Source: Hyphococcus flavus
GTDB lineage: Bacteria; Pseudomonadota; Alphaproteobacteria; Caulobacterales; Parvularculaceae
Assembly (NCBI RefSeq): GCF_028748065.1
Contig: NZ_CP118166.1
Span: forward strand, 1,937,501-2,001,500
DNA: 64,000 nt
Direction of reading: 5' to 3'
The first letter of the stretch is position 1, and every line of letters starts with the position of its first letter. Positions 929 through 15,854 of this stretch are shown here, piece by piece. The position numbers and the translations under genes are program-made. A model generated the notes under the pieces. The model made no database searches. It saw only the letters and a program-made list of their open reading frames with translations, and was not told the origin of the DNA.

Positions 929-3900
929 TTAGCCGATGATGCCTTCGAGTTCGGTGAACTGGATCGTTGAGCCATCGTTTAACTCAACAACGCCTGCTGC
1001 ATCGTCGGTAAAGATGATGCCATCTTCATCCGCGGAAACGATAGCCCCTTCTGTTAGGGTTACAGTCCAGTCGGTTCCGAACTCGCCAAGCGATTCCAGT
1101 CCGCCTTCAACCTGAATGAGGTCTGTCCAGCCTTCACCGCCGTTGATTCGGTCAGAGCCATCACCGAGGGCGTAAACAAATATGTCATCGCCATCGCCGC
1201 CATCCATTCGGTCATTGCCTGCGCCGCCGGTGATAACATCATTACCCGCATCGCCACGAATATTGTCTTTTCCGCCGCCGCCGGAAATAATATCATCGCC
1301 ATCGCCGCCACGCTGGACGTCGTTACCATCACCACCGATCAGCGTGTCATCGCCGCCATTGCCGATTTGCGTCGTCTTGCCGGTCATGCCCGTAGCGTCC
1401 ATGAAGTCGTTGCCAGCGGCGCCGTCAACACGTTCCACATTTGAGGAAGTCATGTCGATGGAAAAATCATCGTTACCTTGAACGATGACGCGGTCGTTGC
1501 CTGCGCCTCCATCAATCACTGTATCTTCCGCGTCAGCATAAATTTTGTCATTGCCCGCGCCGCCGTAAAGTTCGTCCGCGCCAGCATTACCGCGAATATT
1601 GTCTTTTCCGCCGCCGCCGGAAATAATATCGTCGCCATCTCCGCCACGCTGGACGTCGTTACCGCCGCCGCCAGTCAATGTGTCGTCGCCGCCATTGCCG
1701 ATCTGAGTTGCTCGACCGCTCATGCCAGTAGCGTCCATGAAGTCGTTGCCGCCGGCGCCGTCAACGCGCTCAACACTAGAGGCGGTCATGTTGATGGAAA
1801 AATCATCGTTACCTTGAACGATGACACGGTCGTTGCCTGCGCCTCCATCAATCACTGTATCTTCCGCGTCAGCATAAATTTTGTCATTGCCCGCGCCGCC
1901 GTAAAGTTCGTCCGCGCCAGCATTACCGCGAATATTGTCTTTTCCGCCGCCGCCGGAAATAATATCGTCGCCATCTCCGCCACGCTGGACGTCGTTACCG
2001 CCGCCGCCAGTCAATGTGTCGTCGCCGCCATTGCCGATCTGAGTTGCTCGACCGCTCATGCCAGTAGCGTCCAGGACGTCATTGCCAGCGGCGCCGTCAA
2101 CGCGCTCAACACTGGATGCCGCCATATTGATAGAAAAGCCGTTATTTCCACGAACGATTACGCGATCATTACCATCGCCGCCGTCGATTACGGTATCTTC
2201 TGCGTCCGCATAGATTTTGTCGTTGCCAGCGCCGCCATAAAGTTCGTCTGCACCGGCCTTACCGATTATACGATCATTGCCTCCGCCGCCGAAAATGACA
2301 TCGGCGCCCGAAGATCCAACAAGCTTGTCGTTCCCATCCGTTCCGTGGATCGTATTTGTTTCATCCACGTCGCTAACGGCGACAGTAAGCGTGTGCATAG
2401 TCGACTCGCCGCCGGCGCCAATGGCCTCGATTGTGACTTCATGTAAATTTTGCGCTTCAAAGTCCGCAGCGGCGCCGTCTTTCAGTTTCAATTGATTGCC
2501 GACCATTTCGAACATGCCGGAGGGATCCTCGGCGATAGCAAAATCGGTGACGGCCTCGCCAGTTTGCGGATCGGTAGCTGAAATTGTACCAACTATTGCG
2601 CCGCTGTGGTTTTCAATAACTGTCGGCGTTCCGCCAAAGTCTCCATCAACGACGCTGGCGCCGCCCTGAAGCTGCAGGTGGTCGATACCAACAAGGTCTT
2701 CAATGGCGCCGTCCGATTGTTCATTCATCACCCAATTGTTGACAAGGCCCGGTTCAGTTCCCGGATCTGAGAACGGGTTGCCTGCATTGTCAGCGATTTC
2801 AGTTTCGCTACGCGCATAGTCGAATATGCGCACTTCCGAAATCTGGCCTTCAAATACTTGCCCGCTATCAAATCGGCCACCCTCACTATCCTGCTCCTGA
2901 CCAAAAACGAGCGTACCGTCGGATTTGAGGTCACGAATGTTGATGCTGGTCGAAAATTCCTGTTCACCGTCTACATAAACTTTCAGTTCATTGCTCGACT
3001 GATCCCACGAAAACGAAACCTGGTGCTGTTCGCCGTCAAGCAAAGATGAGTTCGGTACGCCTGTGTTAATCTTCTGCCCGGCAAGGAAGACATGCAAATT
3101 ACCGCTAGAACCCTCCATCCACAACAACGCCTCGTTGTCGGAGCCGTTGCTTGCAGCATAAGAAAACAGCGGTGTTCCATTGCCGACATCCGTTTGCGAA
3201 GAAACGAATGAGACTTCAACCGTCAGCGCATCGGTCGGGAAACCTTCCATATTCGCGGCTACTGCATAGTCGTCAGTTCCGCCATCTTCATTCAGTGATA
3301 AAATGCCATTGCCGAATGCGGCATCAAATGAAACATCAATCGGCGCCTCATTAACGTCTGCAACGCTAATCGTAACTGTTTGTTGCGTAGCCTCTCCACT
3401 AGAGCCAATTGCCTCGACAGTAACTTCGTAGCTTTGCTGAGCTTCATGATCGAGTGCGGCGCCGTCTCTCAGTCTCAGCTCATTACCGACAACTTCGAAC
3501 AAGCCTGATGCATCATCAACCAGCGCGAAGCTGGATACCGCCTCACCAGTTTCACCATCAATCGCGGATAGGGAGCCGACAACGGCGCCCTCATTATTCT
3601 CGACAACCGTCGGCGTATCAAAACTCTCGCCGCCAATGACTTTGGCTCCATTCGATAACTGAAGGTCGTTGTTGCCGGCGATATCCTCAACCACGCCGTC
3701 TTTCGAAGAACTCATCACCCAGTTTGAAACGACGCCGGTCTGGGCTTCGGGCCCGTTCAACGGCTCACCTGCATGATCAGCGATTTCCTCAGCAGAGCGC
3801 GCATAGTCAAAGATGCGGGCCTCTGAAATCTCTCCTTCGAAGATCTGGTTCGTGTCGAAACGGCCGCCTTCGGCATCCTGTTCCTGCCCAAAGGCAACAG

Positions 3901-6900
3901 TCCCATCTGTTTTAAGGTCGCGGATGTTTACGGACTTGGAAAAGTCTTCCTGACCATCGACATAGACTTTGAGTTCGTTGGACGCCTGATTCCAGGTAAA
4001 GGAAACAGTATGTTGTTCGCCATCAAGAAGTGATGTGTTGGAAATGCCGGTGTTGAATGATTGCCCTGCAAGAAAGATATTGAGATTGCCGGACCCGCTT
4101 TCGAGCCACATCAACGCTTCGTTGTTGGATCCACCGTCTGCTGCATAAGAAAACAATGGTACGCCTGACCCAACATCGGTTTGTGATGACGTGAAAGTCA
4201 CCTCGACAGTCAGGGCCTGCGTCGGGAAACCTTCCATGTTTGCAGCAATTGCTACATCATCGTTGCCGCCGTCCTGGTTTAACGAAAGAACGCCGGACTG
4301 TGAAATCGGCGAAAGTTCGAAATCAACAGGCGCCTCGTTGATATTGTCAACGTTGATGGTGAATGTCTGTTCAGTCGAGAGGCCGCCCTGGTCTGTGGCC
4401 GTAACGGTTACATCGACAGTCTGTGACTGTTCATAGTCGAGACTGACGCCATCCTTCAGTTTGAGCTGGCCATCCGCGACCTCAAACCGGTCATCTGAAA
4501 CAGTAAACGTGACTGTGTCACCTGCGTCAGGGTCATTTGCTGAAAGTGAGCCAATCATCGCGCCGCTTGCGTTTTCAGAAACTGAACCGCCCTCAAGTGC
4601 AATATCCAAAGGACTTTCATTTACATCGGCTACAGGCACAGTCACTGTTTGCACAGAAGCTTCGCCATGAGTGTCCGTCGCCGTAATGTTGACGTTGATT
4701 TCAGATTCCGTTTCGTAGTCGACTGAAGCGCCTTCCTTCAGCTTCAGAGCGTAACCGCTGTCGTTTTCGACGATCTCAAACCTATCATCATCAACCGTGA
4801 GTGTAACGGCGTCACCTTGCGGATCGGAGACCGTAAATAATGCCGCGCCTTCGCCTGCGTTATTCTCTGTCACGCCATAGAGACTTGCATCGTCAACGCC
4901 TGGAAGACGATAAGAACTGCCGCCGATGACTTCTGTGGCGCCATCTGTGTCTGGTCCGGACCATGCGAGTTGCAATGTCTGCGACCCGCCATTTTCGAAG
5001 TAACGGACCTCGATATCATGAGACCCTTCATCAAGGTCCACGGTTACTGTTCGTGTTCTCGTGCTGTGAAGGCCATCATTATCGAGTACTGGCTGGCCGT
5101 CGATAAACAGCATGCTGCCATCATCGCTGGCCATGGAGAATGTGTAGGACCCACCTTCCTCAACCATCAACTGGCCTTCGTATTTCGCAGCGAAATAATC
5201 GCCTGGCGCACCCTCCCAGAATGCATCCTGGCCATTCATATAGTCGATGCTTTCGACTACCGCTTCAGCGTCAGGCGCAGCGTCGAAGTCAATTTGATTC
5301 AAATTACTGATCGAATGACCGACATTATAATATGACGCCTGAAGACCTTCGCCGCCTGTCAGTGTAATCTCAGGAGCGTCATTGCTGTCAGCTACCTTAA
5401 CGGGCAGCGTCATTGAGCTGCTTGCGCCAGAAGCATCGGTTGCCGTCACTGTGACTTCAACAAGGGACTCGGTTTCGAAGTCGAGGATTGCATCGTCGCG
5501 AAGTTTCAGCGCCAGCTCGCCATCCTGTTCGACGACTTCAAAACGCTCATCGCTGACAGTGTAAATATGTGTGTCATCTGCGTCCGGATCGGTGACATTG
5601 AATTTGGCGATCAACGCGCCAGATTCATCTTCCGGCGCTGTCAAATTATCGAGCGTATAGCCGTGCTGATAGCTATCGCCGCTGATAACTTCTTTCGCGC
5701 CATCTGTATCGGGGCCCGACCAGGCAAGCTGCAAGGTCTGGTGTCCGCCATTTTCAAAATACCGAACTTCAATATCATGGGCGCCTTCATCAAGGTTCAC
5801 GGTCACATTGCGGGTGCGCGTGCCATGCAGCCCGTCATTGTCGAGCACAGGTTGGCCGTCGATGAACAACATGCTGCCATCATCGCTGGCCATGGAGAAT
5901 GTATATGAACCGCCTTCTTCGACGACGATTTGCCCCTCATATTTGGCTGCGAAATAATCGCGAGGCGCGCCTTCCCAAAACGCGTCCTGACCATTCATAT
6001 AGTTCAGATTATCAACGACGCCGGCGGCATCTGGGCTAGCGTTGAAATCGACTTCATCCAGATTCCGTATGGCGTGTCCAACATCAAAGTAGGACGCTTT
6101 GAGGCCTGGGCTATTGGCAAGGCTTAGAACAGGGCCTTCATTCACGTTATCGATAGCGATGAAAAAAGATTGTTCGGTTGAAAGGCCACCCTGATCGGTT
6201 GCGGTGACGGTAACATTGACGCTGTTCGCGGCTTCATGATCGAGGCTGACGCCGTCTTTCAGTTTAAGCTCATTGCCAGCGACCTCAAAGCGATCGTCAG
6301 AGACAGTGAATGTATGTGATCCGCCGGAATCTGGATCGATGGCAGTGAGCTTTCCAACAATTGCACCAGAACTGTTTTCCGCGATACTGGCACCGTTCAA
6401 CGAGATATCAACCGGCGCCTCATTAACGTCTGATACGCTTACGGTAAACGCTTGCTCGGTTGAGAGCCCATCCTGATCGGTTGCGGTTACAGTAATGTTG
6501 ATGCTATCGGCGGATTCATGATCCAGACTGACGCCGTCTTTCAGTTTCAACTGACCATCGACGACCTCAAATCGGTCATCAGAGACAGAGAAACTGACTG
6601 TGTCGCCATTATCAGGGTCAGTTGCAGAAAGTGTTCCCGCTGCTGCGCCAGCAACGTTTTCAGCGATACTAGAACCATTTAGCGATATATCGATCGGCGC
6701 TTCGTTGACGTCTGTAACATTGATAGAGAAGTCCTGCTCAGTTGAGAAGCCGCCCTGGTCCGTCGCAGTCACAGTGACGTTGATGCTGTCCGCAACTTCA
6801 TGGTCGAGGCTGACGCCATCTTTCAGTTTCAACTGACCATCAACGACTTCAAACCGATCATCAGAGACAGAATAGGCGACCGTATCACCAGCGTCATGAT

Positions 6901-8116
6901 CAGTAGACGAGAGCGCGCCAACGACCGCACCAGCGCTGTTCTCGGTAATGGCGTTACCATTCAGCGAGATATCGACAGGCGCCTCGTTAACATCGGAAAC
7001 ATTGATCGAAAACACCTGCTCTGTCGATAAACCGCCTTGATCTGTTGCAATCACGGTAACGTCGATGCTGTCCGCAGCTTCATGATCGAGGCTGGCGCCG
7101 TCTTTCAGTTTTAACTGGCCATCGATGACCTCAAATCGGTCATCAGAGACAGAGAAACTGACAGAGTCGCCAGTATCAGGGTCGGAGGCGGATAGCGAGC
7201 CTACCACAGCGCCCGCGACGTTTTCAGAAATGCTGCCGCCACCAAGGGTAATATCGACAGGGTTTTCGTTGACGTCTGTAACATTGATAGAGAAAGATTC
7301 TTGATAGCTGTTGCCTGTGCTATCGGTGACCTGAATCAAAATATCGAATACATTCTGTGCTTCGAAATCGACAGAAACGCCTGGCTTTAAACGCAACTGG
7401 TCACCGACGATTTCAAAAAAACCTGATGAATCGCCGATAATTTCAAACGTCAGAACATCGTCAATGTTGCCATCACTGGCGGAAAGTGTGGCGACGACCG
7501 AACCTTCGACATTCTCGTCCACAGTAGTTTGCGACAGGGCGATATCGTCTGGCGCCAGATTTGGTTCATGGTCGCCTGAAAGTACGCTTGAAGGCTCGTC
7601 AGTTATCCCAGGATTGTCCGCGGCAGAACTCTTAGCGACTGCTCCGGAACGTACGGAATTGCCGTTATCGCTGCTGCCGACGGTGAAGTCTGGCTGTCGT
7701 GTACTGCTTCCTTGAGCAAAAGACGCTTCATTAGTTGTTGCGAAGCGATTTTCAGAACTCTCACGCTCATCAGTCAGATTTTCTTCAACACTTCGTGGCT
7801 TTTCATTTTCGGACGTTCCAACATCAGCGCCGCCCTGCGCGGTGATTGCAGCGCTCGTCTGGTCAGAAGCGCTTGAGTCCTCTGAGTGGTATGACTTTTC
7901 AGCCTCGGCATCCTGTTCGCCGTAATGAAGGTTTCCATATCCGTTGTCGCCTTCATTGTTGTCAAACTTGAAAGTCTCTCCGTCGCGAGCTTTCTTTAAG
8001 TCTTGGCGTTCGCTTTCCGCAGCTGCTTCAGCCTTTGCGTCAAGCGCATCGCTCTCCGAAAAACTCTTGTTTGAAAAGTTCGTTGAACCCTCAGTCGATG
8101 AAGTATCTTTTGCCAT
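929..8116 (-). CDS. giant RTX adhesin with cadherin-like, PA14 and LamG-like domains
   Basis: A 2395-residue secreted surface protein. There is no Sec signal; the first ~190 residues are acidic, Ser-rich and look disordered. Then come five cadherin-like repeats (~190-660), a PA14 module (~670-820), one cadherin-like repeat, a second PA14 module (~920-1070), two more cadherin-like repeats, a LamG-like module (~1270-1510), a cadherin-like repeat, a second LamG-like module (~1600-1830), a last cadherin-like repeat, and RTX GGxGxD repeats (~1910-2330). The tail of about 60 residues is typical of uncleaved type I secretion signals. PA14 modules carry the SDDGS calcium/sugar motif known from lectin-type PA14 domains, so glycan binding is a reasonable inference. 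The divergent exporter genes from 8295 are the likely secretion machinery. No LapG-type TAAG cleavage site was found near the N-terminus. Confidence 0.93.
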   Translation of the reverse strand: MAKDTSSTEGSTNFSNKSFSESDALDAKAEAAAESERQDLKKARDGETFKFDNNEGDNGYGNLHYGEQDAEAEKSYHSEDSSASDQTSAAITAQGGADVGTSENEKPRSVEENLTDERESSENRFATTNEASFAQGSSTRQPDFTVGSSDNGNSVRSGAVAKSSAADNPGITDEPSSVLSGDHEPNLAPDDIALSQTTVDENVEGSVVATLSASDGNIDDVLTFEIIGDSSGFFEIVGDQLRLKPGVSVDFEAQNVFDILIQVTDSTGNSYQESFSINVTDVNENPVDITLGGGSISENVAGAVVGSLSASDPDTGDSVSFSVSDDRFEVIDGQLKLKDGASLDHEAADSIDVTVIATDQGGLSTEQVFSINVSDVNEAPVDISLNGNAITENSAGAVVGALSSTDHDAGDTVAYSVSDDRFEVVDGQLKLKDGVSLDHEVADSINVTVTATDQGGFSTEQDFSINVTDVNEAPIDISLNGSSIAENVAGAAAGTLSATDPDNGDTVSFSVSDDRFEVVDGQLKLKDGVSLDHESADSINITVTATDQDGLSTEQAFTVSVSDVNEAPVDISLNGASIAENSSGAIVGKLTAIDPDSGGSHTFTVSDDRFEVAGNELKLKDGVSLDHEAANSVNVTVTATDQGGLSTEQSFFIAIDNVNEGPVLSLANSPGLKASYFDVGHAIRNLDEVDFNASPDAAGVVDNLNYMNGQDAFWEGAPRDYFAAKYEGQIVVEEGGSYTFSMASDDGSMLFIDGQPVLDNDGLHGTRTRNVTVNLDEGAHDIEVRYFENGGHQTLQLAWSGPDTDGAKEVISGDSYQHGYTLDNLTAPEDESGALIAKFNVTDPDADDTHIYTVSDERFEVVEQDGELALKLRDDAILDFETESLVEVTVTATDASGASSSMTLPVKVADSNDAPEITLTGGEGLQASYYNVGHSISNLNQIDFDAAPDAEAVVESIDYMNGQDAFWEGAPGDYFAAKYEGQLMVEEGGSYTFSMASDDGSMLFIDGQPVLDNDGLHSTRTRTVTVDLDEGSHDIEVRYFENGGSQTLQLAWSGPDTDGATEVIGGSSYRLPGVDDASLYGVTENNAGEGAALFTVSDPQGDAVTLTVDDDRFEIVENDSGYALKLKEGASVDYETESEINVNITATDTHGEASVQTVTVPVADVNESPLDIALEGGSVSENASGAMIGSLSANDPDAGDTVTFTVSDDRFEVADGQLKLKDGVSLDYEQSQTVDVTVTATDQGGLSTEQTFTINVDNINEAPVDFELSPISQSGVLSLNQDGGNDDVAIAANMEGFPTQALTVEVTFTSSQTDVGSGVPLFSYAADGGSNNEALMWLESGSGNLNIFLAGQSFNTGISNTSLLDGEQHTVSFTWNQASNELKVYVDGQEDFSKSVNIRDLKTDGTVAFGQEQDAEGGRFDTNQIFEGEISEARIFDYARSAEEIADHAGEPLNGPEAQTGVVSNWVMSSSKDGVVEDIAGNNDLQLSNGAKVIGGESFDTPTVVENNEGAVVGSLSAIDGETGEAVSSFALVDDASGLFEVVGNELRLRDGAALDHEAQQSYEVTVEAIGSSGEATQQTVTISVADVNEAPIDVSFDAAFGNGILSLNEDGGTDDYAVAANMEGFPTDALTVEVSFVSSQTDVGNGTPLFSYAASNGSDNEALLWMEGSSGNLHVFLAGQKINTGVPNSSLLDGEQHQVSFSWDQSSNELKVYVDGEQEFSTSINIRDLKSDGTLVFGQEQDSEGGRFDSGQVFEGQISEVRIFDYARSETEIADNAGNPFSDPGTEPGLVNNWVMNEQSDGAIEDLVGIDHLQLQGGASVVDGDFGGTPTVIENHSGAIVGTISATDPQTGEAVTDFAIAEDPSGMFEMVGNQLKLKDGAAADFEAQNLHEVTIEAIGAGGESTMHTLTVAVSDVDETNTIHGTDGNDKLVGSSGADVIFGGGGNDRIIGKAGADELYGGAGNDKIYADAEDTVIDGGDGNDRVIVRGNNGFSINMAASSVERVDGAAGNDVLDATGMSGRATQIGNGGDDTLTGGGGNDVQRGGDGDDIISGGGGKDNIRGNAGADELYGGAGNDKIYADAEDTVIDGGAGNDRVIVQGNDDFSINMTASSVERVDGAGGNDFMDATGMSGRATQIGNGGDDTLTGGGGNDVQRGGDGDDIISGGGGKDNIRGNAGADELYGGAGNDKIYADAEDTVIDGGAGNDRVIVQGNDDFSIDMTSSNVERVDGAAGNDFMDATGMTGKTTQIGNGGDDTLIGGDGNDVQRGGDGDDIISGGGGKDNIRGDAGNDVITGGAGNDRMDGGDGDDIFVYALGDGSDRINGGEGWTDLIQVEGGLESLGEFGTDWTVTLTEGAIVSADEDGIIFTDDAAGVVELNDGSTIQFTELEGIIG
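1247..2254 (-). repeat. three tandem 336-bp RTX supra-repeats
   Basis: Units of 112 residues begin at GADELYGG (2254, 1918 and 1582 on the minus strand). Each combines RTX nonapeptides, a non-RTX segment around SINM..SSVERVDGA and a second RTX block. Units two and three are nearly identical in DNA over long stretches; the third diverges at its end into the final RTX block. This points to recent duplication or ongoing homogenisation, and is a likely site of length variation and short-read assembly collapse. Confidence 0.9.
2620..4310 (-). repeat. duplicated LamG-like module pair in the adhesin
   Basis: Two modules of about 230 residues (DNA about 3590-4310 and 2620-3320) share the same blocks: LSLN.DGG, NMEGFPT.ALTVEV, YVDGQ, NIRDLK.DGT, FGQEQD.EGGRFD, EARIFDYARS and NWVM. 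The fold looks like a concanavalin/LamG jelly roll (inference from the VDG and IFDYAR blocks). Each is followed by one cadherin-like repeat, so a composite LamG-cadherin unit was probably duplicated. Confidence 0.7.
4905..6110 (-). repeat. duplicated PA14 module pair in the adhesin
   Basis: Two PA14 modules (about 5660-6110 and 4905-5350) are nearly identical at residue level, sharing MNGQDAFWEGAP, YFAAKYEGQ, ASDDGSMLFIDGQPVLD and RYFENGG. The SDDGS motif is the Asp-Asp calcium/ligand motif of lectin-like PA14 domains. A cadherin-like repeat separates the copies. Confidence 0.85.
6130..7560 (-). repeat. five tandem cadherin-like repeats (~300 bp each) in the adhesin
   Basis: Each unit of about 100 residues follows the pattern DV.EAPVDISL...ENSAGAVVG, DDRFEV..GQLKLKDG and VTATDQGGLSTEQ. 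The unit nearest the N-terminus is the most diverged. Asp/Glu-rich linkers fit calcium-rigidified stalk repeats. Repeats of the same type recur singly elsewhere in the protein. Confidence 0.85.
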
Positions 8117-8294: not shown

Positions 8295-10016
8295 ATGCTG
8301 GAAACCATTAAGGAAATATCTTCTTCTTTTTTCGGCGCGAATGGCGAAAATCGGCAGGCGTTTCCAGAACCGCCTATCGGCGCGGAGACCTATGCTGCAT
8401 CCGCTACGGTTAATCTTCTTGCCCTGGCGCTTCCGCTGACCGTCCTTCAGGTCTATGATCGCGTTTTGCCAAACGCAGCATTTGAAACGCTGGCGCTATT
8501 AATAATCATATTATGCTGTGCGGTTTGCATTGACGCAGCGCTTAAATATTTACGATCCAAAGTAGTGAACTGGTCGGCGGCGAGTTTCACACACAAATTG
8601 AGTGTTGATGCGTTTACCTCCATGCTGTCAACAAAGCCCTCCCGGTTCAGTCAAACAACATCAAGTGAGCATCTCGAGCGCTATAATTCGATCTCTGGTC
8701 TTGGCAATCATATTAGTGCGCATTCAAGGATCGTCATTGTCGATATCCTTTTTATTCCTGTTTTCTCAGCGGTTATTCTCCTAATTGGCGGCTGGATCTT
8801 CGCCAGTGTTGTTTTTCTATTCGCCATTTTTGGTTACATGGCGTTGAAGTCTACAAGGTCTATCAACGACTTGATCGCAGAGCGCGAGCAACTCGACTCT
8901 CGGAAACAAGATTTCATTATTGAGATTCTGGGCGCCATTCATACGGTTAAGGCGAATGCGATGGAGCCGTTAATTATGCGGCGGTTTGAGCGATTGCAGT
9001 CGTCAGCGAGTTTGCTGACGCGGCGCATGATTTTGCTTAACGGATATAGCCAGACCTATCAGGCGGCGTACGCATCTCTGTCCACCATTTCTATTGTAGC
9101 AGTTGGCGCTGTACTCGCCATCAACGGCCGCTTAACGTTAGGCGCTTTGGCGTGCTGCATGCTGTTATCATCCCAACTATTGCAGCCGCTTTTGCGTTCG
9201 TTGTCCAGTTGGAATGAGACTAAGCTCGCTAAACATCGCCAAACCCGTGTCGAGGCGTTGTTTGAAACTTGCCCTCATCAATCAAAAGTATCTGAACCGT
9301 TTTTTCCCAAGCGGTTTACGCCCAAATCAGTGCGATTGAAAAGTGTAACAATCCAGCGCGGAGAAGCGCTTCCGCTGTTTGAAGATCTTTCTTTTGATAT
9401 CAAGGCTGGTTCTTTCATAGCGATTAAGGGCGTTGACGGAAGCGGGAGGTCAACACTGCTGCGAGCATTACGCTACGATGCGCCAATCACCAAGGGAGAA
9501 ATTATTTTTGGGGATGGCTCTCTTGCAAAAAATAGCGAGGCCGCTGTTCGTGCTTCAGTTCGCTATGTCGGGCAAACGCCTGTTATTTTCAGAGGCAGCA
9601 TCCTCGACAACATTACTTTGTTTGGCGAAACGCCGGTTCATGTAGCGTTATCTGCATCCAAATTTGTTGGATTAGATGAAGAAATTGCACGAATGCCCCT
9701 TGGGTATGACACGGTATTGAAAAGCAATGTTGCTAGCGACTTGCCGGCGCCGACTGCGCAACGCATTACGCTCGCACGCGCACTGGCGATGCGGCCGTCG
9801 GTTCTGATTCTGGACGAAGCAAACACTTTGCTGGATTTTGCGGGGGAGCAGCAATTTATAAGGGCGCTTGAAAAACTGCGCGGAAAAACAACGATCATCC
9901 TTTCATCTCATAGGCCGTCAATGTTGCGCCTCGCCGACCAAGTTTATGAAATCAAGGGCCTAAAACTTGTGGCGACGAGCGTACCGGATCACTTCAGGCA
10001 GGCGACGGCATCATGA
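8295..10016 (+). CDS. type I secretion ABC exporter subunit 1, degenerate ATPase motifs
   Basis: 573 residues: an N-terminal exporter membrane domain with predicted helices (~30-300) and a C-terminal ATP-binding domain (~345-565). It would form the inner-membrane channel for the adjacent RTX adhesin. Walker A reads GVDGSGRST, so the invariant Lys is Arg385. Where LSGGQ belongs the sequence is SDLPAPTAQR. The Q-loop (GQTP), Walker B with glutamate (VLILDEAN) and the switch His539 (SSHRPS) are kept. The stop overlaps the start of the next gene (ATGA), so the two ABC subunits are translationally coupled and could form a heterodimer. No strong ribosome binding site precedes the ATG. Family call is strong; the unusual motifs make its catalytic competence uncertain. 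Confidence 0.85.
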   Translation: MLETIKEISSSFFGANGENRQAFPEPPIGAETYAASATVNLLALALPLTVLQVYDRVLPNAAFETLALLIIILCCAVCIDAALKYLRSKVVNWSAASFTHKLSVDAFTSMLSTKPSRFSQTTSSEHLERYNSISGLGNHISAHSRIVIVDILFIPVFSAVILLIGGWIFASVVFLFAIFGYMALKSTRSINDLIAEREQLDSRKQDFIIEILGAIHTVKANAMEPLIMRRFERLQSSASLLTRRMILLNGYSQTYQAAYASLSTISIVAVGAVLAINGRLTLGALACCMLLSSQLLQPLLRSLSSWNETKLAKHRQTRVEALFETCPHQSKVSEPFFPKRFTPKSVRLKSVTIQRGEALPLFEDLSFDIKAGSFIAIKGVDGSGRSTLLRALRYDAPITKGEIIFGDGSLAKNSEAAVRASVRYVGQTPVIFRGSILDNITLFGETPVHVALSASKFVGLDEEIARMPLGYDTVLKSNVASDLPAPTAQRITLARALAMRPSVLILDEANTLLDFAGEQQFIRALEKLRGKTTIILSSHRPSMLRLADQVYEIKGLKLVATSVPDHFRQATAS

Positions 10017-12235
10017 TTTATAAAGCCAGACAATCGCCAACTAAGTCGAGTGCTGTTTCCCAATTAAATGGGATAAGCCAGGCTTCCCAGATTACGCATG
10101 TTCATCACTTGCGCGCTAAACTCAGGCAGGCGTTTTCCGCAGATGCGGAAATAAAAAATGCTGTCAACGATGACAGCATGAAAGTGCTTCAAAGGTTTCT
10201 GGAGTTGACTGATTGGGTGCAAGGCCAGAGGCGTATTTTTGAGGCGATGCCCCATGCCGATGATGTCACGACAGTAGCAGCATTCAGAACTGTACTATTT
10301 CGGCTGGGTTTTTCTTCTTCTGTTGAAAAAGCAAGTCGGGAAAATTTAAGAAACGAATACCTTCCGTGTTTTCTGTTTCACGAAAACGGTTCTGTAAAGC
10401 TTGCCGAGCGTGTGGAAAAGAACGGCGACATTGTCATCTTTGACCCATCCGCAAAAACGAATACAAAAATAAACCTGAACGCGCTGGATGCGTACGCCAT
10501 ATTTCCTGAACAGAACAACACAGGGGAAAAAAAAGAAACAGTTACAAGTTCCTGGTCGTCTGAGATACTCAGAATTTTCCGGCCATTGGTTAAGCAGACA
10601 TTCCTGATTAGCTTTTTTGTAAATATTCTTGCTCTGGCGCCGCCGCTGTTTGTCATGATGGTCTACGATAAGGCTGTGGCAACGAAATCATTCGATGTGT
10701 TGATCGGTTTGACTGTCGGGATTTCTATGATTGTCGGCGCGGAATTCCTGCTGAGACAGGTGCGTGTCAAACAGCAATCCTATCTTGGCGCAAGGCTGGA
10801 TGAGCAGTTGAATGAAACTGTCTTCAGGCATCTTTTGCATTTATCTTTATCTCACACTCAGGGTGCGCCAATCGGTTCGCAGTTAACACGGTTGCGGCAG
10901 ATGACGTCGCTTCATGAGGCATTCACCGGACCGCTGGCAAGCGCTTTCTTCGATCTTCCTTTTATCGTACTTTTCTTGACAGTAATTGCGTTTCTCGGGG
11001 GGCATCTCGTTTGGGCGCCGGTGACGCTAATTGTCGTTTATGCGCTAATGGCGGCATGGGCGCTGCCAAAAAACAGCGCTCTTATACGCAAAGCCGGCGA
11101 AGGGAGAGCGCAACTAAACAACCTTGTTGTTGAGGCTGTTTCATCACAGCAAGCGATCAACGATCTTTCGGCAGAACACATCTGGTTACGACGACAGAGA
11201 AAATTATCTGCAGAAGTTTCGATGGCTAATGTAAAAGTACGGCAGTTGAATTTTTTGATGCAGACTTTTTCTCAGTCGATGGTAGCGCTTGCTGGCGTAA
11301 GTGTTTTAGCCATTGGCGTTAGCATGGTGCTTGCTGGTACGTTGTCTGCAGGCGGCCTCATTGCCGTTATGGCGTTATCTTGGCGGGTTTTAGGGCCAAT
11401 CAGAAGCATCTTCCTTACCGGGATGACGCTTGGTCAGACTTTGCAGAGCGTTCAGCAGGCGAACAGACTTGTTAAAATGCCTCTTGAGCGTGATCCGAAT
11501 GCGAGTGCGACTATTCCGAGGACGTTCAAAGGAAATATTGCATTTAACAATGTGACGTTCCGCTATCCGACCCAACGAGAGCCTGCTTTGCGAGGCGTAT
11601 CATTTAACATCCAGCCGGGGCAGGTACTATGTATTTACGGCCAAAGTGGGTCAGGCGCATCTACGATCTTGCGATTACTGCTAGGGCTTGACCAGCAGCA
11701 GGCCGGCGCCATTACTGTTGACGGGCTGGACTTGCGCCAGCTCGACAAGGGTGAGTGGCGCCATTCGATCGGTGTTGGGCTGCAATCGCTTGACCTGTTT
11801 CACGGAACGGTCGCTCAGAATATTCGTTTCGCCAAACCTGACGCCACGAATGAAGAAATAGACGGAATCGTCCGTAAGCTCGGGATCGACAAGTACTTCG
11901 GCAACGCTCTTGATCGGGGCGTGGAGACTGTGTGCAGTACAAGAGCACGAGCAACTTGGCCAGATCCGTTGGTGGCAAGAATTAATCTTGCGCGTGCTTT
12001 TATCAAAGACGTGCCGATTTATTTGCTCGATGAGCCGGCTGCAACGCTTGATGATGGTGGCGAAAGAGCATTGTTGGCGATGATAGAAGAAAAGCGCAAA
12101 ACAAGCGCCATTATCATGACGTCGCAACGGCCAAGTCACATGCGCATTGCCGATCTTGTCGCATGGATGGAGCGCGGTGCACTGCGCGACATGGGGCCGC
12201 CTGAAAAAATCGTTCCAAATGTTCTTGCCGCCTAA
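10013..12235 (+). CDS. type I secretion ABC exporter subunit 2, degenerate ATPase motifs
   Basis: 740 residues: an N-terminal ~170-residue region like the peptidase-dead C39-like domain of RTX exporters (FRTVLFRLGFS), a membrane domain (~190-470) and an ATP-binding domain (~500-735). Walker A is GQSGSGAST, with Ala549 in place of the Lys. No LSGGQ signature is present (region WPDPLVARINLAR). The switch His is replaced by Gln705 (TSQRPS). The Q-loop and Walker B glutamate (IYLLDEPA) remain. In exporters the C39-like domain binds the substrate, so this subunit probably recruits the adhesin. It starts inside the stop of subunit 1 and lies just before the adaptor gene. Both subunits being degenerate is unexpected, because heterodimeric exporters normally keep one good ATP site. 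Confidence 0.85.
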   Translation: MIYKARQSPTKSSAVSQLNGISQASQITHVHHLRAKLRQAFSADAEIKNAVNDDSMKVLQRFLELTDWVQGQRRIFEAMPHADDVTTVAAFRTVLFRLGFSSSVEKASRENLRNEYLPCFLFHENGSVKLAERVEKNGDIVIFDPSAKTNTKINLNALDAYAIFPEQNNTGEKKETVTSSWSSEILRIFRPLVKQTFLISFFVNILALAPPLFVMMVYDKAVATKSFDVLIGLTVGISMIVGAEFLLRQVRVKQQSYLGARLDEQLNETVFRHLLHLSLSHTQGAPIGSQLTRLRQMTSLHEAFTGPLASAFFDLPFIVLFLTVIAFLGGHLVWAPVTLIVVYALMAAWALPKNSALIRKAGEGRAQLNNLVVEAVSSQQAINDLSAEHIWLRRQRKLSAEVSMANVKVRQLNFLMQTFSQSMVALAGVSVLAIGVSMVLAGTLSAGGLIAVMALSWRVLGPIRSIFLTGMTLGQTLQSVQQANRLVKMPLERDPNASATIPRTFKGNIAFNNVTFRYPTQREPALRGVSFNIQPGQVLCIYGQSGSGASTILRLLLGLDQQQAGAITVDGLDLRQLDKGEWRHSIGVGLQSLDLFHGTVAQNIRFAKPDATNEEIDGIVRKLGIDKYFGNALDRGVETVCSTRARATWPDPLVARINLARAFIKDVPIYLLDEPAATLDDGGERALLAMIEEKRKTSAIIMTSQRPSHMRIADLVAWMERGALRDMGPPEKIVPNVLAA

Positions 12236-12241
12236 AGATAA

Positions 12242-13597
12242 ATGAGACGCAACATGTCTGAGCAAAATGATAGAAGTGAAATTCAAAATGTCGGCGAGCG
12301 CCATGCGCTTGCCCTGCCGATTGAATTGGAAGAAGGCGCTCCGCCGCATCTTGCGCGGACTGCGATGGCGATTGTCAGCGGGTTAGTCATTATGCTTCTC
12401 GTTTGGGCGAGTATTGCGAGCATTCGTGAGCTTTCTGTCGCTACGGGCGAAATTGCGCCGCACGGCTCGACCCGGCAGGCGGCCCATTTTGAGGGCGGTA
12501 TTGTCAACGAAGTGTTTGTCGGGCCCGGGGATACTGTCCGTGCAGGCCAGCCGATTGTCGAGCTTAAAAAGGAAAGTGGTGGTGGGGAATTCGCGCGCGC
12601 TTCAGCGCGCAGAGCGGGCCTGGCCATGCGAGCTGAGCGCCTGGAAGCTCAAGCAGCGGAGCGAACTCCCGATTTTTCTCAATGGCAATCTGAATGGCCT
12701 GATCTCGTCATTGAACAGAAAGCTTTGTTTGAGGCGGCGAGCGCTACACATGAAGCAAAAATGGCGGCGGTTATTGCGGGGGAAGCATCGGCTCAGGCGG
12801 AAGTGGAGCGTATGCTTGCGGAGCATAAATCCGAATCAGAGCTCTTAAATTTGGCAAACGAACAACTGGCCATTCAGGAAAAGCTAATCGTCGACGGGTT
12901 TACGTCCAAGCAAAAATATCTCGATGCACGCGCGTCTGTATCTTCAGCGCAAGCGCGCGCAGCCGCGGCAAAATCAAGACTGGCGCAGGCGCGTGAGGCG
13001 AATGAAACCGCTAAAGCTGAACGGGTTGGTTTGGAAGCGGAATATAAGACTGCGCTGGCCGAAGAGCGCTCGCAAGTCGTTTCCGAGCTGGCTGAGCTTG
13101 AGAAACCCTTTGCCTCCTTGCGCGACAGAAGCGACAGGCTGATCGTGCGAGCGCCAATTGCAGGTGTGGTGAATACTGTGACTGTGGATGGCGCCGGTGA
13201 TGTCGTTCGCCCAGGGGAGGTAGTTGCTGAAATCACACCAGTAGGAGCCGAGCTTTTTGCAGAAGTGCGCGTAAAGCCAAAGGATATCGGTCACATTACG
13301 CCGGGACAGAAAACCGAGCTTTCAGTAACGACGTTTGATCCGAACCGCTATGGAAAATTAAGCGGGGTGGTGTCGCATATCTCGCCTGACAGTTTTAAAG
13401 ACGAGAAATCGGATGAAGCATATTATATCGCTTACATCGCATTGGATAATCAGGCTATCGGAAACGGCCGCAACAAACGTATGTTGTCATCCGGCATGGA
13501 AGTGCGGGCTGAAATCGTTACTCAACGGCGCACGGTAATGCAGTATATCCTTAAGCCGGTTGCCCGGTCGCTGGATCATGCTTTTACAGAGAGATGA
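12242..13597 (+). CDS. HlyD-family membrane fusion protein of the type I system
   Basis: 451 residues: a short cytosolic N-terminus, one membrane helix (~40-60), a biotinyl/lipoyl-like half (GGIVNEVFVGPGDTV), a long Ala/Glu-rich coiled coil (~110-290), the second lipoyl half (VRAPIAGVVNTV) and a beta-barrel end. It would bridge the ABC exporter and a TolC-type outer-membrane duct; no TolC-like gene is in this operon. It lies 6 bases after the second ABC gene. The start is uncertain: ATG at 12254 is also possible, and neither has a strong ribosome binding site. Confidence 0.9.
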   Translation: MRRNMSEQNDRSEIQNVGERHALALPIELEEGAPPHLARTAMAIVSGLVIMLLVWASIASIRELSVATGEIAPHGSTRQAAHFEGGIVNEVFVGPGDTVRAGQPIVELKKESGGGEFARASARRAGLAMRAERLEAQAAERTPDFSQWQSEWPDLVIEQKALFEAASATHEAKMAAVIAGEASAQAEVERMLAEHKSESELLNLANEQLAIQEKLIVDGFTSKQKYLDARASVSSAQARAAAAKSRLAQAREANETAKAERVGLEAEYKTALAEERSQVVSELAELEKPFASLRDRSDRLIVRAPIAGVVNTVTVDGAGDVVRPGEVVAEITPVGAELFAEVRVKPKDIGHITPGQKTELSVTTFDPNRYGKLSGVVSHISPDSFKDEKSDEAYYIAYIALDNQAIGNGRNKRMLSSGMEVRAEIVTQRRTVMQYILKPVARSLDHAFTER

Positions 13598-13623: not shown

Positions 13624-14421
13624 CTACGCAGGCGAAGCGGTCAGCACCTTTTTTAAGCCAGTAACGTTGCGTCGGCTTATGGGAAACTCTTTGCCATTTG
13701 TAAGGCGCGCCTTGTGTTCCACACCATTGTCCGAGGAAACGCGTTCTACTTTTTCGATGTTTACTATTGTCTGGCGGTGAATCCGATAAAACTTGTCAGA
13801 TAAGAGTTGATTTTCAAAATGCTTGAGCGATTCGCGGACGACAAATGTTTCTGAAGTGGTGTGGACACAGGCGTATTCCCCCGCCGCTTCAATATAAAGA
13901 ACGTCTTCTTCACGTACTCTTGCCACACCGCCGCCGACATTCAGATTCAGCATGTTCACTGATGCCAATGCCTGATTGATAACTGTTTCATTATTTGCGA
14001 TTGCGGATAGAAATTCGGTGGAGAGGTTGAGCTTTCTGCGTTTTTCGAGTTCTTGCAAAACCCGCTGGATACACCGTTCAATGCGGTCCGCTGCAACCGG
14101 CTTCGTTACATAATCAATCGCCTCGGTTTCGAAGGCTTCAATGGCCCGATCGCCATAGGCGGTTAAAAAAACAACAAGCGGAGCTTCTTCACCTGTGAGC
14201 TTCCGGGCAACGTCGAAGCCAGTAGGTCCCGGCATGGAAACGTCCAGAAACACGACATTGGGGGCGAGCGTATCAATCAGCGCCAAAGCGTCTTTGCCGT
14301 TTGACGCCTCGCCGCAAACTTCCACGTTAACAGAAACGGCTTGAAGCCGTTTTGTTAAAGCAAGGCGTGCGGCGGCTTCATCATCAACCAAAAGCGCCCG
14401 AAGTTTAGGGGTTTCGGTCAT
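13624..14421 (-). CDS. LytTR-family response regulator
   Basis: 265 residues: an N-terminal receiver domain (acidic pair in LLVDDE, phospho-Asp in VVFLDVSMPG, Lys in YVTKPV) and a C-terminal LytTR DNA-binding domain (~165-260; YIEAAGEYACVHT, FYRIHRQTIVN). It overlaps the upstream kinase gene by 4 bases (ATGA), so the two are co-expressed partners. It converges with the adhesin exporter operon 26 bases away. Proximity hints at control of that locus, but no binding site was identified. Confidence 0.92.
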   Translation of the reverse strand: MTETPKLRALLVDDEAAARLALTKRLQAVSVNVEVCGEASNGKDALALIDTLAPNVVFLDVSMPGPTGFDVARKLTGEEAPLVVFLTAYGDRAIEAFETEAIDYVTKPVAADRIERCIQRVLQELEKRRKLNLSTEFLSAIANNETVINQALASVNMLNLNVGGGVARVREEDVLYIEAAGEYACVHTTSETFVVRESLKHFENQLLSDKFYRIHRQTIVNIEKVERVSSDNGVEHKARLTNGKEFPISRRNVTGLKKVLTASPA

Positions 14422-15524
14422 TGCGTTGCCCCATGAGAAAGCGAAGGAAATGTAAGTACTACAGAGAATGCAAGTTTTGTATCTTCGGTAATCTCGAGCG
14501 ATGTGTCGCCGTCAAAAAACATATCTAATCGCTCGGCGACATTTTTTAATCCCACACCGAAAGAAGCAGGTTTTTCTGCTGAATAGTCCAAAAGGCTGTT
14601 TTCAGGAATTTCGTTGCGAACAACAATCTGTGTGTGTCCGTCATGCTGACGGGCTGAGACCGTGATTTCACCGCCCTTTGCGCTTCGGGACAGCCCATGT
14701 TTCATAGCGTTCTCAACGAGGGGCTGTAAAAGCAGCGGCGGCAGCTGAATGTTTTTCAGTTCATCAGGAATGATAAAACGAGTTTTCAGATCATCGCCAA
14801 ACCGTGTCCGCTCCACATCAAGATAAAGCCCCACTCTCGCAATTTCCTGCTCGAGCGTAATGCTGGTAGCGTCACCGTCAGATAAACTACAGCGTAATAA
14901 ATCCGACAGGCTTTGAATGGCGCGGTCGGCCGTCTGCATGTCGTTATTTAAGACATGGCCCGATACGGTGTTGAGCGCATTGAATAACAGATGAGGATTA
15001 ACCTGATATCTCAGCATCTCCGAACGCGCCCGCGATGCGGCGGTTTCAAGTTCGCTTAATCTCGCGCGCTGCCTCGCAGCTTCGCCTGCATAAAGTAGAT
15101 ACAAGAACAGGCCCGTCCATATAGCGAGTATAATAAAGCGGGAAGGTGCATACGCACCCCATTTTTTCCAATAGAAAATTTGCGTGCTGTCATAAATTCC
15201 AAAAATATGCTTCAGTTCATAGTGCCCTGCAGCAAAGATGAATGATCCGAGAACGCAGGCAATAAAAGCGACAGTAATGAAGAGTTTTTCATCATAATGG
15301 CGTATGCGAACAAATAAGTAGCGAAAGCAGCTTGTGATCGTCAGGCCCAGGCCGGTCGGCATTAACGATTTCAACAGGGTTGCGGTAACGGCCGGGTCCA
15401 GCTCATTAAGGCGGCGATACTCCAGCCCCTGCAAAACATCAAAAGCCCAGAAGACCGTCCAGAAAATGAGCTGGGCGATCCAGAATCTGCGGCCCGACGG
15501 AATATTTCTGGTGTTTTCTGACAT
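14418..15524 (-). CDS. LytS-type sensor histidine kinase
   Basis: 368 residues with about five N-terminal membrane helices and no obvious large periplasmic sensor. A His_kinase (PF06580-type) domain carries the phospho-acceptor motif YQVNPHLLFNAL, the N box PLVENAMKHG and a G box GVGLKNVAERL. It is expected to phosphorylate the LytTR regulator with which it overlaps. The frame is open to 15656, but the upstream part is Arg/Cys-rich and low-complexity. The ATG at 15524 (MSENTRN), just before the first membrane segment, is taken as the start. Confidence 0.88.
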   Translation of the reverse strand: MSENTRNIPSGRRFWIAQLIFWTVFWAFDVLQGLEYRRLNELDPAVTATLLKSLMPTGLGLTITSCFRYLFVRIRHYDEKLFITVAFIACVLGSFIFAAGHYELKHIFGIYDSTQIFYWKKWGAYAPSRFIILAIWTGLFLYLLYAGEAARQRARLSELETAASRARSEMLRYQVNPHLLFNALNTVSGHVLNNDMQTADRAIQSLSDLLRCSLSDGDATSITLEQEIARVGLYLDVERTRFGDDLKTRFIIPDELKNIQLPPLLLQPLVENAMKHGLSRSAKGGEITVSARQHDGHTQIVVRNEIPENSLLDYSAEKPASFGVGLKNVAERLDMFFDGDTSLEITEDTKLAFSVVLTFPSLSHGATQ

Positions 15525-15854
15525 AGGCTCTGTGGTTGCTCCAGGCGGGTTTTTGCAGAAAAAGCGCGTTGAACATAGTCTTTGGCGCTGCCGCCTATCG
15601 CATGAGCGGCGCCGTTCGCCATGTTTTTTGCTGGAATGCGTCTTTTGGCCCGCCAAAACTTTCTTGCCGGTGTGCCGCTGGCTTCTTTCGGAATTAACTC
15701 TTGTTGTGGAGTTTGTTGCCCCGTGACCTTTTCAGGGTGATGGACTATACTTGCTTTGGCGCCAGGGGAGGCGAGGAAATTAGCTTCAGTTCTTGATTTT
15801 GCGGCCTTAGTGGCTGGTTCCTGATTCGCGTTCTCATTGGAACGGAGATTATTG
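15525..15854. other. 330-bp divergent intergenic region without a supported gene
   Basis: It lies between the leftward kinase gene and the rightward secreted-protein/cyclase operon, so it should contain promoters for both. The open frames crossing it lack ribosome binding sites and recognisable protein features. No clear palindrome or promoter was found by eye. Confidence 0.5.

What the first reader, a model, noticed from the sequence alone, without database searches (positions are those of the whole stretch)
8295..12235. Type I exporter with two ABC subunits, both with broken ATP-site motifs
Seen: subunit 1 has Arg385 for the Walker A Lys; subunit 2 has Ala549 for it and Gln705 for the switch His. 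Neither has LSGGQ; both keep the Q-loop and Walker B glutamate. Known: heterodimeric exporters keep one consensus site. Two impaired subunits beside an intact giant cargo imply either an unconventional ATP cycle, another ATPase, or a cargo-holding device. The frames are intact, so simple decay is unlikely.
Basis: partly seen in the sequence, partly recalled or inferred. Interest (0 to 1): 0.8.

Follow-up and report, generated by a model that had tools for sequence, protein, structure and literature searches.

The report
Protein exporter without normal ATP sites
A two-part bacterial protein exporter, kept by natural selection next to the giant surface protein it probably exports, has lost the normal ATP-using residues in both halves, so it may run or hold its cargo without ordinary ATP hydrolysis.

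Summary
In detail: Arg385 in ABC1; Ala549 and Gln705 in ABC2; no LSGGQ in either. It is not decay. ABC1 orthologues occur in 24 of 28 genomes of the genus (Parvularculaceae/Marinicaulis group), with ABC2 beside them in 26 of 26 loci; NBD dN/dS is 0.02-0.14 in five close pairs. In 22 of 23 complete genus pairs neither subunit has the Lys/Glu/His triad. ABC1 has Arg for Lys in 24 of 25. In ABC2, Lys and the catalytic Glu never occur together: basal members keep Lys and His with Asn or Asp for Glu; one derived clade, the window's, lost Lys and His. Distant relatives in the phylum are split or fused ABC1+ABC2 exporters that also lack LSGGQ in both halves (0 of 84, 0 of 81) but mostly keep the triad in ABC2 (48 of 56). 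Genus cargos carry an N-terminal NLH[YF]G module, one per exporter. Best reading: a dedicated T1SS conduit that does not cycle by normal ATP hydrolysis and may hold its adhesin by this tag. Energy source and holding are unproven.

The parts
929..8116 (-). Giant cargo, 2395 aa: N-terminal module, linker, cadherin repeats, PA14, LamG, RTX repeats, C-terminal end
   Evidence: Pfam scan; a divergent ORF with the module stands beside the exporter in 24 of 26 genus loci
7895..8089 (-). Cargo N-terminal module ERxxLKKARD...GYGNLHYGEQ, one per exporter in the genus
8295..10016 (+). ABC1, 573 aa: TMD + NBD, no room for a C39-like domain; Walker A Lys->Arg385, signature LPAPT, Glu508 and His539 kept
   Evidence: AlphaFold model best matched by HlyB
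10013..12235 (+). ABC2, 740 aa: N-terminal region covered by the LssB profile (where HlyB-type exporters carry the C39-like domain), TMD + NBD; Walker A Lys->Ala549, signature WPDPL, Glu674 kept, His->Gln705
12242..13597 (+). HlyD-family type I adaptor, 451 aa
   Evidence: TIGR01843 above cut-off; third gene of the operon in relatives

Best explanation
ABC1 and ABC2 form the heterodimeric inner-membrane part of a dedicated type I secretion system that exports, C-terminus first, the divergently encoded giant RTX/cadherin adhesin through HlyD and a TolC-like protein encoded elsewhere. In this genus both composite ATP sites have been altered and kept altered, so the pair does not run a normal two-site or one-site ATP hydrolysis cycle. 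Most likely the NBDs bind nucleotide weakly or stably and act as a closed or slowly gated platform; export of the unfolded chain is driven mainly by something other than repeated ATP hydrolysis (membrane potential, folding of the exported chain in Ca2+). Export probably ends with the cargo's conserved N-terminal module docked at the exporter, which would leave the adhesin attached to the cell. Shown: gene content, motif states, their conservation and branching, purifying selection, one-to-one exporter/module co-occurrence. Inferred: heterodimer (supported by natural fusions), cargo identity, catalytic inactivity, energy source, retention.
For: Neither subunit has K/E/H in 22 of 23 complete genus pairs, against 5 of 40 other class-level pairs and 0 of 16 pairs from outside the class. 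ABC2 Lys and Glu co-occur in 0 of 23 genus pairs but in every readable relative; on a well-supported tree the Asn rows are the basal grade, Asp is one clade, and Glu (Ala in L068) with Lys and His lost is another, so no sampled member has the consensus site. NBD dN/dS: ABC1 0.11-0.14, ABC2 0.02-0.14 in five pairs. The replacement signatures are conserved: Pro484 and Gln489 of ABC1, Trp649, Leu653 and Arg656 of ABC2 have zero entropy in 23 rows. Heterodimer: ABC1 and ABC2 are one chain in 9 loci (L164, L203-L210). Cargo link: 26 modules for 26 exporters in the same 24 genomes, none under E 0.05 in the 38 family genomes without the exporter; in G013 the cargo lies about 110 kb away and still has the module. 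Precedents: Walker A Arg with a changed signature in the degenerate site of ABCG5/G8 (PMC7756269, section 7); proton-coupled transport by LmrA lacking its NBD (PMC2704374, passages); an abstract start that calls T1SS a Brownian ratchet (PMC8486122, search listing).
Against: HlyB H662A (switch His) abolishes surface exposure of HlyA, and that paper found no Ca2+ pulling force for HlyA (PMC5018854, passages): a known T1SS does need hydrolysis. ABC1 keeps Glu508 and an invariant His539, which argues for some catalysis there. L080 keeps Lys in ABC1, a full triad. Motif reading is not an ATPase assay. The module could be a targeting rather than a holding signal, and a looser form of it occurs where the triad is intact. 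The Lys/Glu exclusion rests on few changes of state. dN/dS for the window's own pair with L062 is saturated. No heterodimer model could be run; the ABC2 model was poor (pLDDT 66).
Confidence: 0.45

Rival explanations
1. Residual ATPase: ATP is still hydrolysed, slowly, at the site made of ABC1's P-loop (Arg385), Glu508 and His539 and ABC2's WPDAL-like loop; the ABC2 site is the dead one. Export is conventional but slow.
For: ABC1 His is H in 25 of 25 genus copies although variable in relatives (21 of 42 and 3 of 17); Glu or Asp in 25 of 25. Arg keeps a positive charge and GxDGSGR[ST] is almost invariant. L080 has a full triad in ABC1.
Against: ABC2 signature lost (W[PS][DEHN][AP]L in 24 of 24 readable copies); Q-loop Gln of ABC1 missing in 6 of 25. 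Arg for Lys in ABCG5/G8 belongs to the degenerate site (PMC7756269, section 7).
Confidence: 0.31
2. Pure anchor: the pair no longer transports; it forms a platform that docks the N-terminal module of an adhesin exported by another T1SS of the genome.
For: One module per exporter; two other ABC+HlyD loci in the genome have consensus or near-consensus P-loop, signature and Walker B (L002/L058, L005/L059).
Against: TMDs are under strong constraint, the cargo keeps its RTX repeats, and the adaptor gene is kept in the operon, which a mere anchor would not need.
Confidence: 0.1
3. Borrowed ATPase: a canonical T1SS ABC protein joins the complex (HlyB works as three dimers) and supplies hydrolysis.
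For: Canonical T1SS ABC proteins exist in the genome; three HlyB dimers per complex (PMC11026475, passage).
Against: Natural ABC1-ABC2 fusions argue for a self-contained dimer. I made no systematic search for a recurring extra ATPase gene.
Confidence: 0.1
4. Pseudogene or sequencing error.
For: A few copies in other assemblies have broken frames (ABC1 of L057, with an ambiguous base; cargos of L074 and L078).
Against: Arg at the ABC1 site in 24 of 25 genus copies, lost triads in 22 of 23 pairs, dN/dS far below 1.
Confidence: 0.01

Closest known systems
LssB/LapB-type and HlyB T1SS exporters (TIGR03375, TIGR01846)
   Same: TMD-NBD architecture, N-terminal extension on one subunit, HlyD partner, RTX cargo; AlphaFold model of ABC1 is best matched by HlyB of the HlyB/D complex
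   Different: Two different subunits, one without the N-terminal extension; no LSGGQ; Lys/Glu/His triad broken in both; scores below the TIGR03375 cut-off
Vibrio MARTX two-ABC T1SS (RtxB/RtxD/RtxE)
   Same: Two ABC proteins plus a HlyD homologue in an operon divergent from a giant RTX cargo, both ABC proteins needed (PMC3034196, passages)
   Different: Not compared by sequence here (named only); state of its motifs not tested
Heterodimeric ABC exporters with one degenerate site (TAP, TmrAB, TM287/288, BmrCD, ABCG5/G8, Pdr5)
   Same: Asymmetric dimer, changed signature, Walker A Arg as in ABCG5/G8
   Different: The reviewed ones keep one consensus site (PMC7756269, passages and section 7); here neither site is consensus
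LapA/LapG retention of RTX adhesins
   Same: Giant adhesin with an N-terminal element expected to leave the cell last
   Different: No LapG-type protease (PF06035) found in the window's genome; the module is short

Membership tests
Type I secretion ABC exporter | ABC_membrane + ABC_tran half-transporter with a HlyD adaptor gene and RTX cargo beside it | tested here: met
Type I secretion ABC exporter | Consensus Walker A Lys, LSGGQ, Walker B Glu and switch His in at least one composite site | tested here: not met
   neither subunit K/E/H in 22 of 23 genus pairs, the window's among them; no LSGGQ
TIGR03375 LssB subfamily | Score above the curated cut-off of 693.1 | tested here: not met
   298 and 440 bits
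Heterodimeric ABC exporter | Two different half-transporters that pair | tested here: inconclusive
   Adjacent in 26 of 26 genus loci and fused in 9 relatives; pairing itself not tested
Heterodimeric exporter with one degenerate site | Exactly one consensus site remains | tested here: not met
LapA/LapG adhesin retention | LapG-type C93 protease in the genome | tested here: not met
   the same search rings in 1 of 14 control genomes, Caulobacter
ATPase | ATP binding and hydrolysis | not testable with these tools
   needs purified protein

The most novel reading that the evidence does not exclude
An ABC-type protein secretion machine that has given up ATP hydrolysis altogether: selection first removed the catalytic Glu and later the Lys and His of one site, and the Lys of the other, turning the NBDs into a static or nucleotide-clamped dock, while a giant adhesin is driven out by membrane potential and extracellular folding and stays held by its N-terminal NLHYG tag.
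Probability: 0.25. Interest if true: 0.9.

Novelty: new variant of a known kind. Interest (0 to 1): 0.64.

Why it matters
What drives a polypeptide through a type I secretion system (ATP per step, ATP as a gate, membrane potential, folding outside) is discussed as open even for HlyA (PMC5018854, passages). A conserved exporter with no consensus ATP site is a natural experiment on that question, with relatives that show other stages of the change. The one-to-one N-terminal cargo module gives a handle on cargo recognition or retention.

Tried and rejected
Pseudogene or read error: rejected by genus-wide conservation and dN/dS. Plasmid spread: no plasmid match for ABC1 at E 1e-40. Lap-type retention: no PF06035 in the own genome. 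An N-terminal module special to the degenerate exporters: my first regex missed a looser motif of relatives; corrected, so the looser motif belongs to a wider set, while the ERxALKKAR...NLH[YF]G form is that of the genus. A class-wide search with the looser alignment A4 was not run, because only three columns are conserved. ABC1 A-loop: alignment ambiguous; no claim made. ABC2 fold: model weak, not searched. Heterodimer modelling: the tool takes one chain of at most 1200 aa and the natural fusions are longer. Vibrio RtxB/RtxE were not fetched or compared. Literature searches listed no paper whose title or abstract start describes a T1SS with two non-consensus sites; the lists were capped (20 of 65, 15 of 39) and the library holds open-licence papers only.
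Full report
Observation. ABC1 keeps its switch His (His539). The four genes are a 2395-aa cargo on the minus strand and, divergent from it, ABC1, ABC2 (4-base overlap) and HlyD (6 bases on). Pfam sees ABC_membrane and ABC_tran in both ABC proteins, and cadherin, PA14, LamG/pentaxin and RTX repeats in the cargo. Both ABC proteins score best with TIGR03375 (LssB), under its cut-off; the adaptor is above the TIGR01843 cut-off.

Distribution. The window's genome is G000 (3,472,649 bases, one contig). A profile of ABC1 (A1, 23 rows) finds the orthologue (690 bits or more) in 24 of 62 genomes of the family, all in the window's genus (24 of 28), and in 0 of 34 genomes of eight other genera. Two genomes hold two copies, so there are 26. 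More distant homologues (307-535 bits, a clear gap) occur in 43 other genomes of 385 in the class and in 49 genomes outside the genus of 398 in the phylum; only three candidates per genome were scored at E 1e-90, so these are lower bounds. I fetched 40 of the 45 class-level matches and a hand-picked 20 of the 77 phylum-search matches, chosen to include fusions. ABC1 and ABC2 are neighbours or fused in 40 of 40 and in 19 of 20 (L196 lacks ABC2); HlyD is present in 36 of the 40, and the other four run out of contig. Nine loci carry ABC1 and ABC2 as one chain of about 1300-1480 aa (L164, L203-L210). One genome (G470, single contig of 4,719,581 bases) has what I recall as the size of Magnetococcus marinus MC-1.

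Motifs. Counts are, on 26 genus loci, 43 other loci of the class and 17 loci from outside the class. Complete pairs: 23, 40 and 16 (dropped in the genus: L054 and L055 with truncated ABC2, L057 with broken ABC1). Triad K/E/H in ABC1: 1 of 23, 16 of 40, 3 of 16. In ABC2: 0 of 23, 32 of 40, 16 of 16. In at least one subunit: 1 of 23 (L080), 35 of 40, 16 of 16. The fifth letter of the signature is Gln in 0 of 84 ABC1 and 0 of 81 readable ABC2 copies, so LSGGQ is absent from all copies examined. Relatives have mostly LPxGxxQR in ABC1 and LPAGF- or LSAGF-like loops in ABC2. In the genus, ABC1 has Arg for Lys in 24 of 25 (also in 3 of 42 copies elsewhere in the class), Pro for the signature Ser in 25 of 25, and His in 25 of 25. 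Genus ABC2 has K in 11, T 7, A 4, V 2, S 1 (one unreadable); Glu 13, Asp 6, Asn 4, Ala 1; Gln for His in 14, His in 10. Five other ABC exporters of the own genome were read as controls: LSGGQ in three, LSGGE in one, and LSAGQ with Lys, Glu and His in the fifth (L005).

History and constraint. On a tree of concatenated ABC1 and ABC2 with the motif columns removed (28 rows, careful search), the 13 rows without Lys form one clade (100/99) and the 6 Asp rows another (100/100), while the 4 Asn rows are the basal grade. Lys loss needs one change and the Glu/Asp/Asn/Ala states four. ABC2 Lys occurs with Glu in 0 of 23 genus pairs. The simplest reading is that ABC2's site was already disabled in a different way before the window's clade lost its Lys and His; these are few events and the tree alone cannot prove direction. 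dN/dS in five close pairs (they share members; NBD dS 0.3-1.3) is 0.11-0.14 for ABC1 NBDs, 0.02-0.14 for ABC2 NBDs and 0.05-0.13 for HlyD; the two wider pairs tried, the window's with L062 among them, are largely saturated. The substituted signatures are themselves conserved (Pro and Gln in ABC1; Trp, Leu and Arg in ABC2: zero entropy in 23 rows). Only small residues (A, T, V, S) replace Lys in ABC2.

Cargo. All 24 genus loci with a divergent ORF of at least 180 aa beside ABC1 have the motif in its first 180 residues (of 26 loci; L070 has no such ORF and L071 is at a contig edge; 0.31 expected by shuffling). The module reads loosely ERxaLkKA[RQ]...[NS]LH[YF]G. A profile of it (A3, built from 22 of the 26 modules) finds 26 modules in exactly the 24 genomes with the exporter; the weakest is E 2.4e-9, a contig-edge fragment. 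The 38 family genomes without the exporter give nothing under E 0.05. Four of the 26 were not in the profile: G013, G014:C70, G019 and G024:C43. In G013 the cargo is about 110 kb from the exporter, 1830 aa, RTX-bearing, with the module, so the link is not mere neighbourhood. A looser motif ([NGS][ILVMT]HxG) stands in the first 180 residues of 17 of 35 divergent ORFs in the 43 other class-level loci (0.53 expected; one of the 17, L148, may be a shadow ORF), and in 1 of 17 loci from outside the class (0.70 expected). So a form of the tag belongs to the class-level branch of the family, including members with intact triads.

Mechanism. The AlphaFold model of ABC1 (mean pLDDT 76) is an ABC exporter half, best matched by HlyB in the HlyB/D complex. 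I infer a heterodimer from adjacency and fusions. A normal cycle is unlikely: one composite site lacks Lys and the signature; the other lacks the signature plus either Lys and His or Glu. The reviewed exporters with a degenerate site keep the other one (PMC7756269, passages and section 7). Against an ATP-free exporter, HlyB H662A abolishes surface exposure of HlyA, and that paper finds no Ca2+ pull for HlyA while naming the proton motive force as a possible early source (PMC5018854, passages). For it, LmrA without its NBD catalyses proton-coupled transport (PMC2704374, passages). The C-terminus-first order, the conserved N-terminal module followed in most cargos by a linker of about 100-190 residues (39 in L080, 272 in L066; the measure failed in L067), and the absence of LapG make a cargo-holding end state plausible but unproven. 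A TolC-like protein is available elsewhere in the genome (OEP family, 15 domain matches).

Verdict. A real, conserved and unusual T1SS: a new variant of a known kind. The anatomy is solid; the energy source and the holding role are hypotheses.

Noticed in passing
L163, L164, L169, L172, L173: Five class-level pairs outside the genus also lack the K/E/H triad in both subunits, through loss of Glu or His rather than Lys; four are ABC1 KND with ABC2 KEY or KET.
   Followed up: partly
L203-L210, L164: Natural fusions of ABC1 and ABC2 into one chain of about 1300-1480 aa; L203, L204 and L210 have two HlyD genes beside them.
   Followed up: partly
L196: An ABC1 homologue (832-aa ORF) with HlyD but no ABC2 beside it.
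   Followed up: no
L039 (G025:C24:209963-211909); G022:C1:120375-122135: A further LssB-like ABC protein (about 785 aa) in two genus genomes; the L039 copy has a normal P-loop, no LSGGQ and Gln at the switch His.
   Followed up: no
L059: Another T1SS-like locus of the same genome: ABC with LSAGQ, HlyD and a 1348-aa protein.
   Followed up: partly
window 13624-15656: LytTR response regulator and His_kinase-family sensor gene pair just beyond the adaptor gene; no match at E 1e-15 in the other 25 genus loci fetched, many with short flanks.
   Followed up: no
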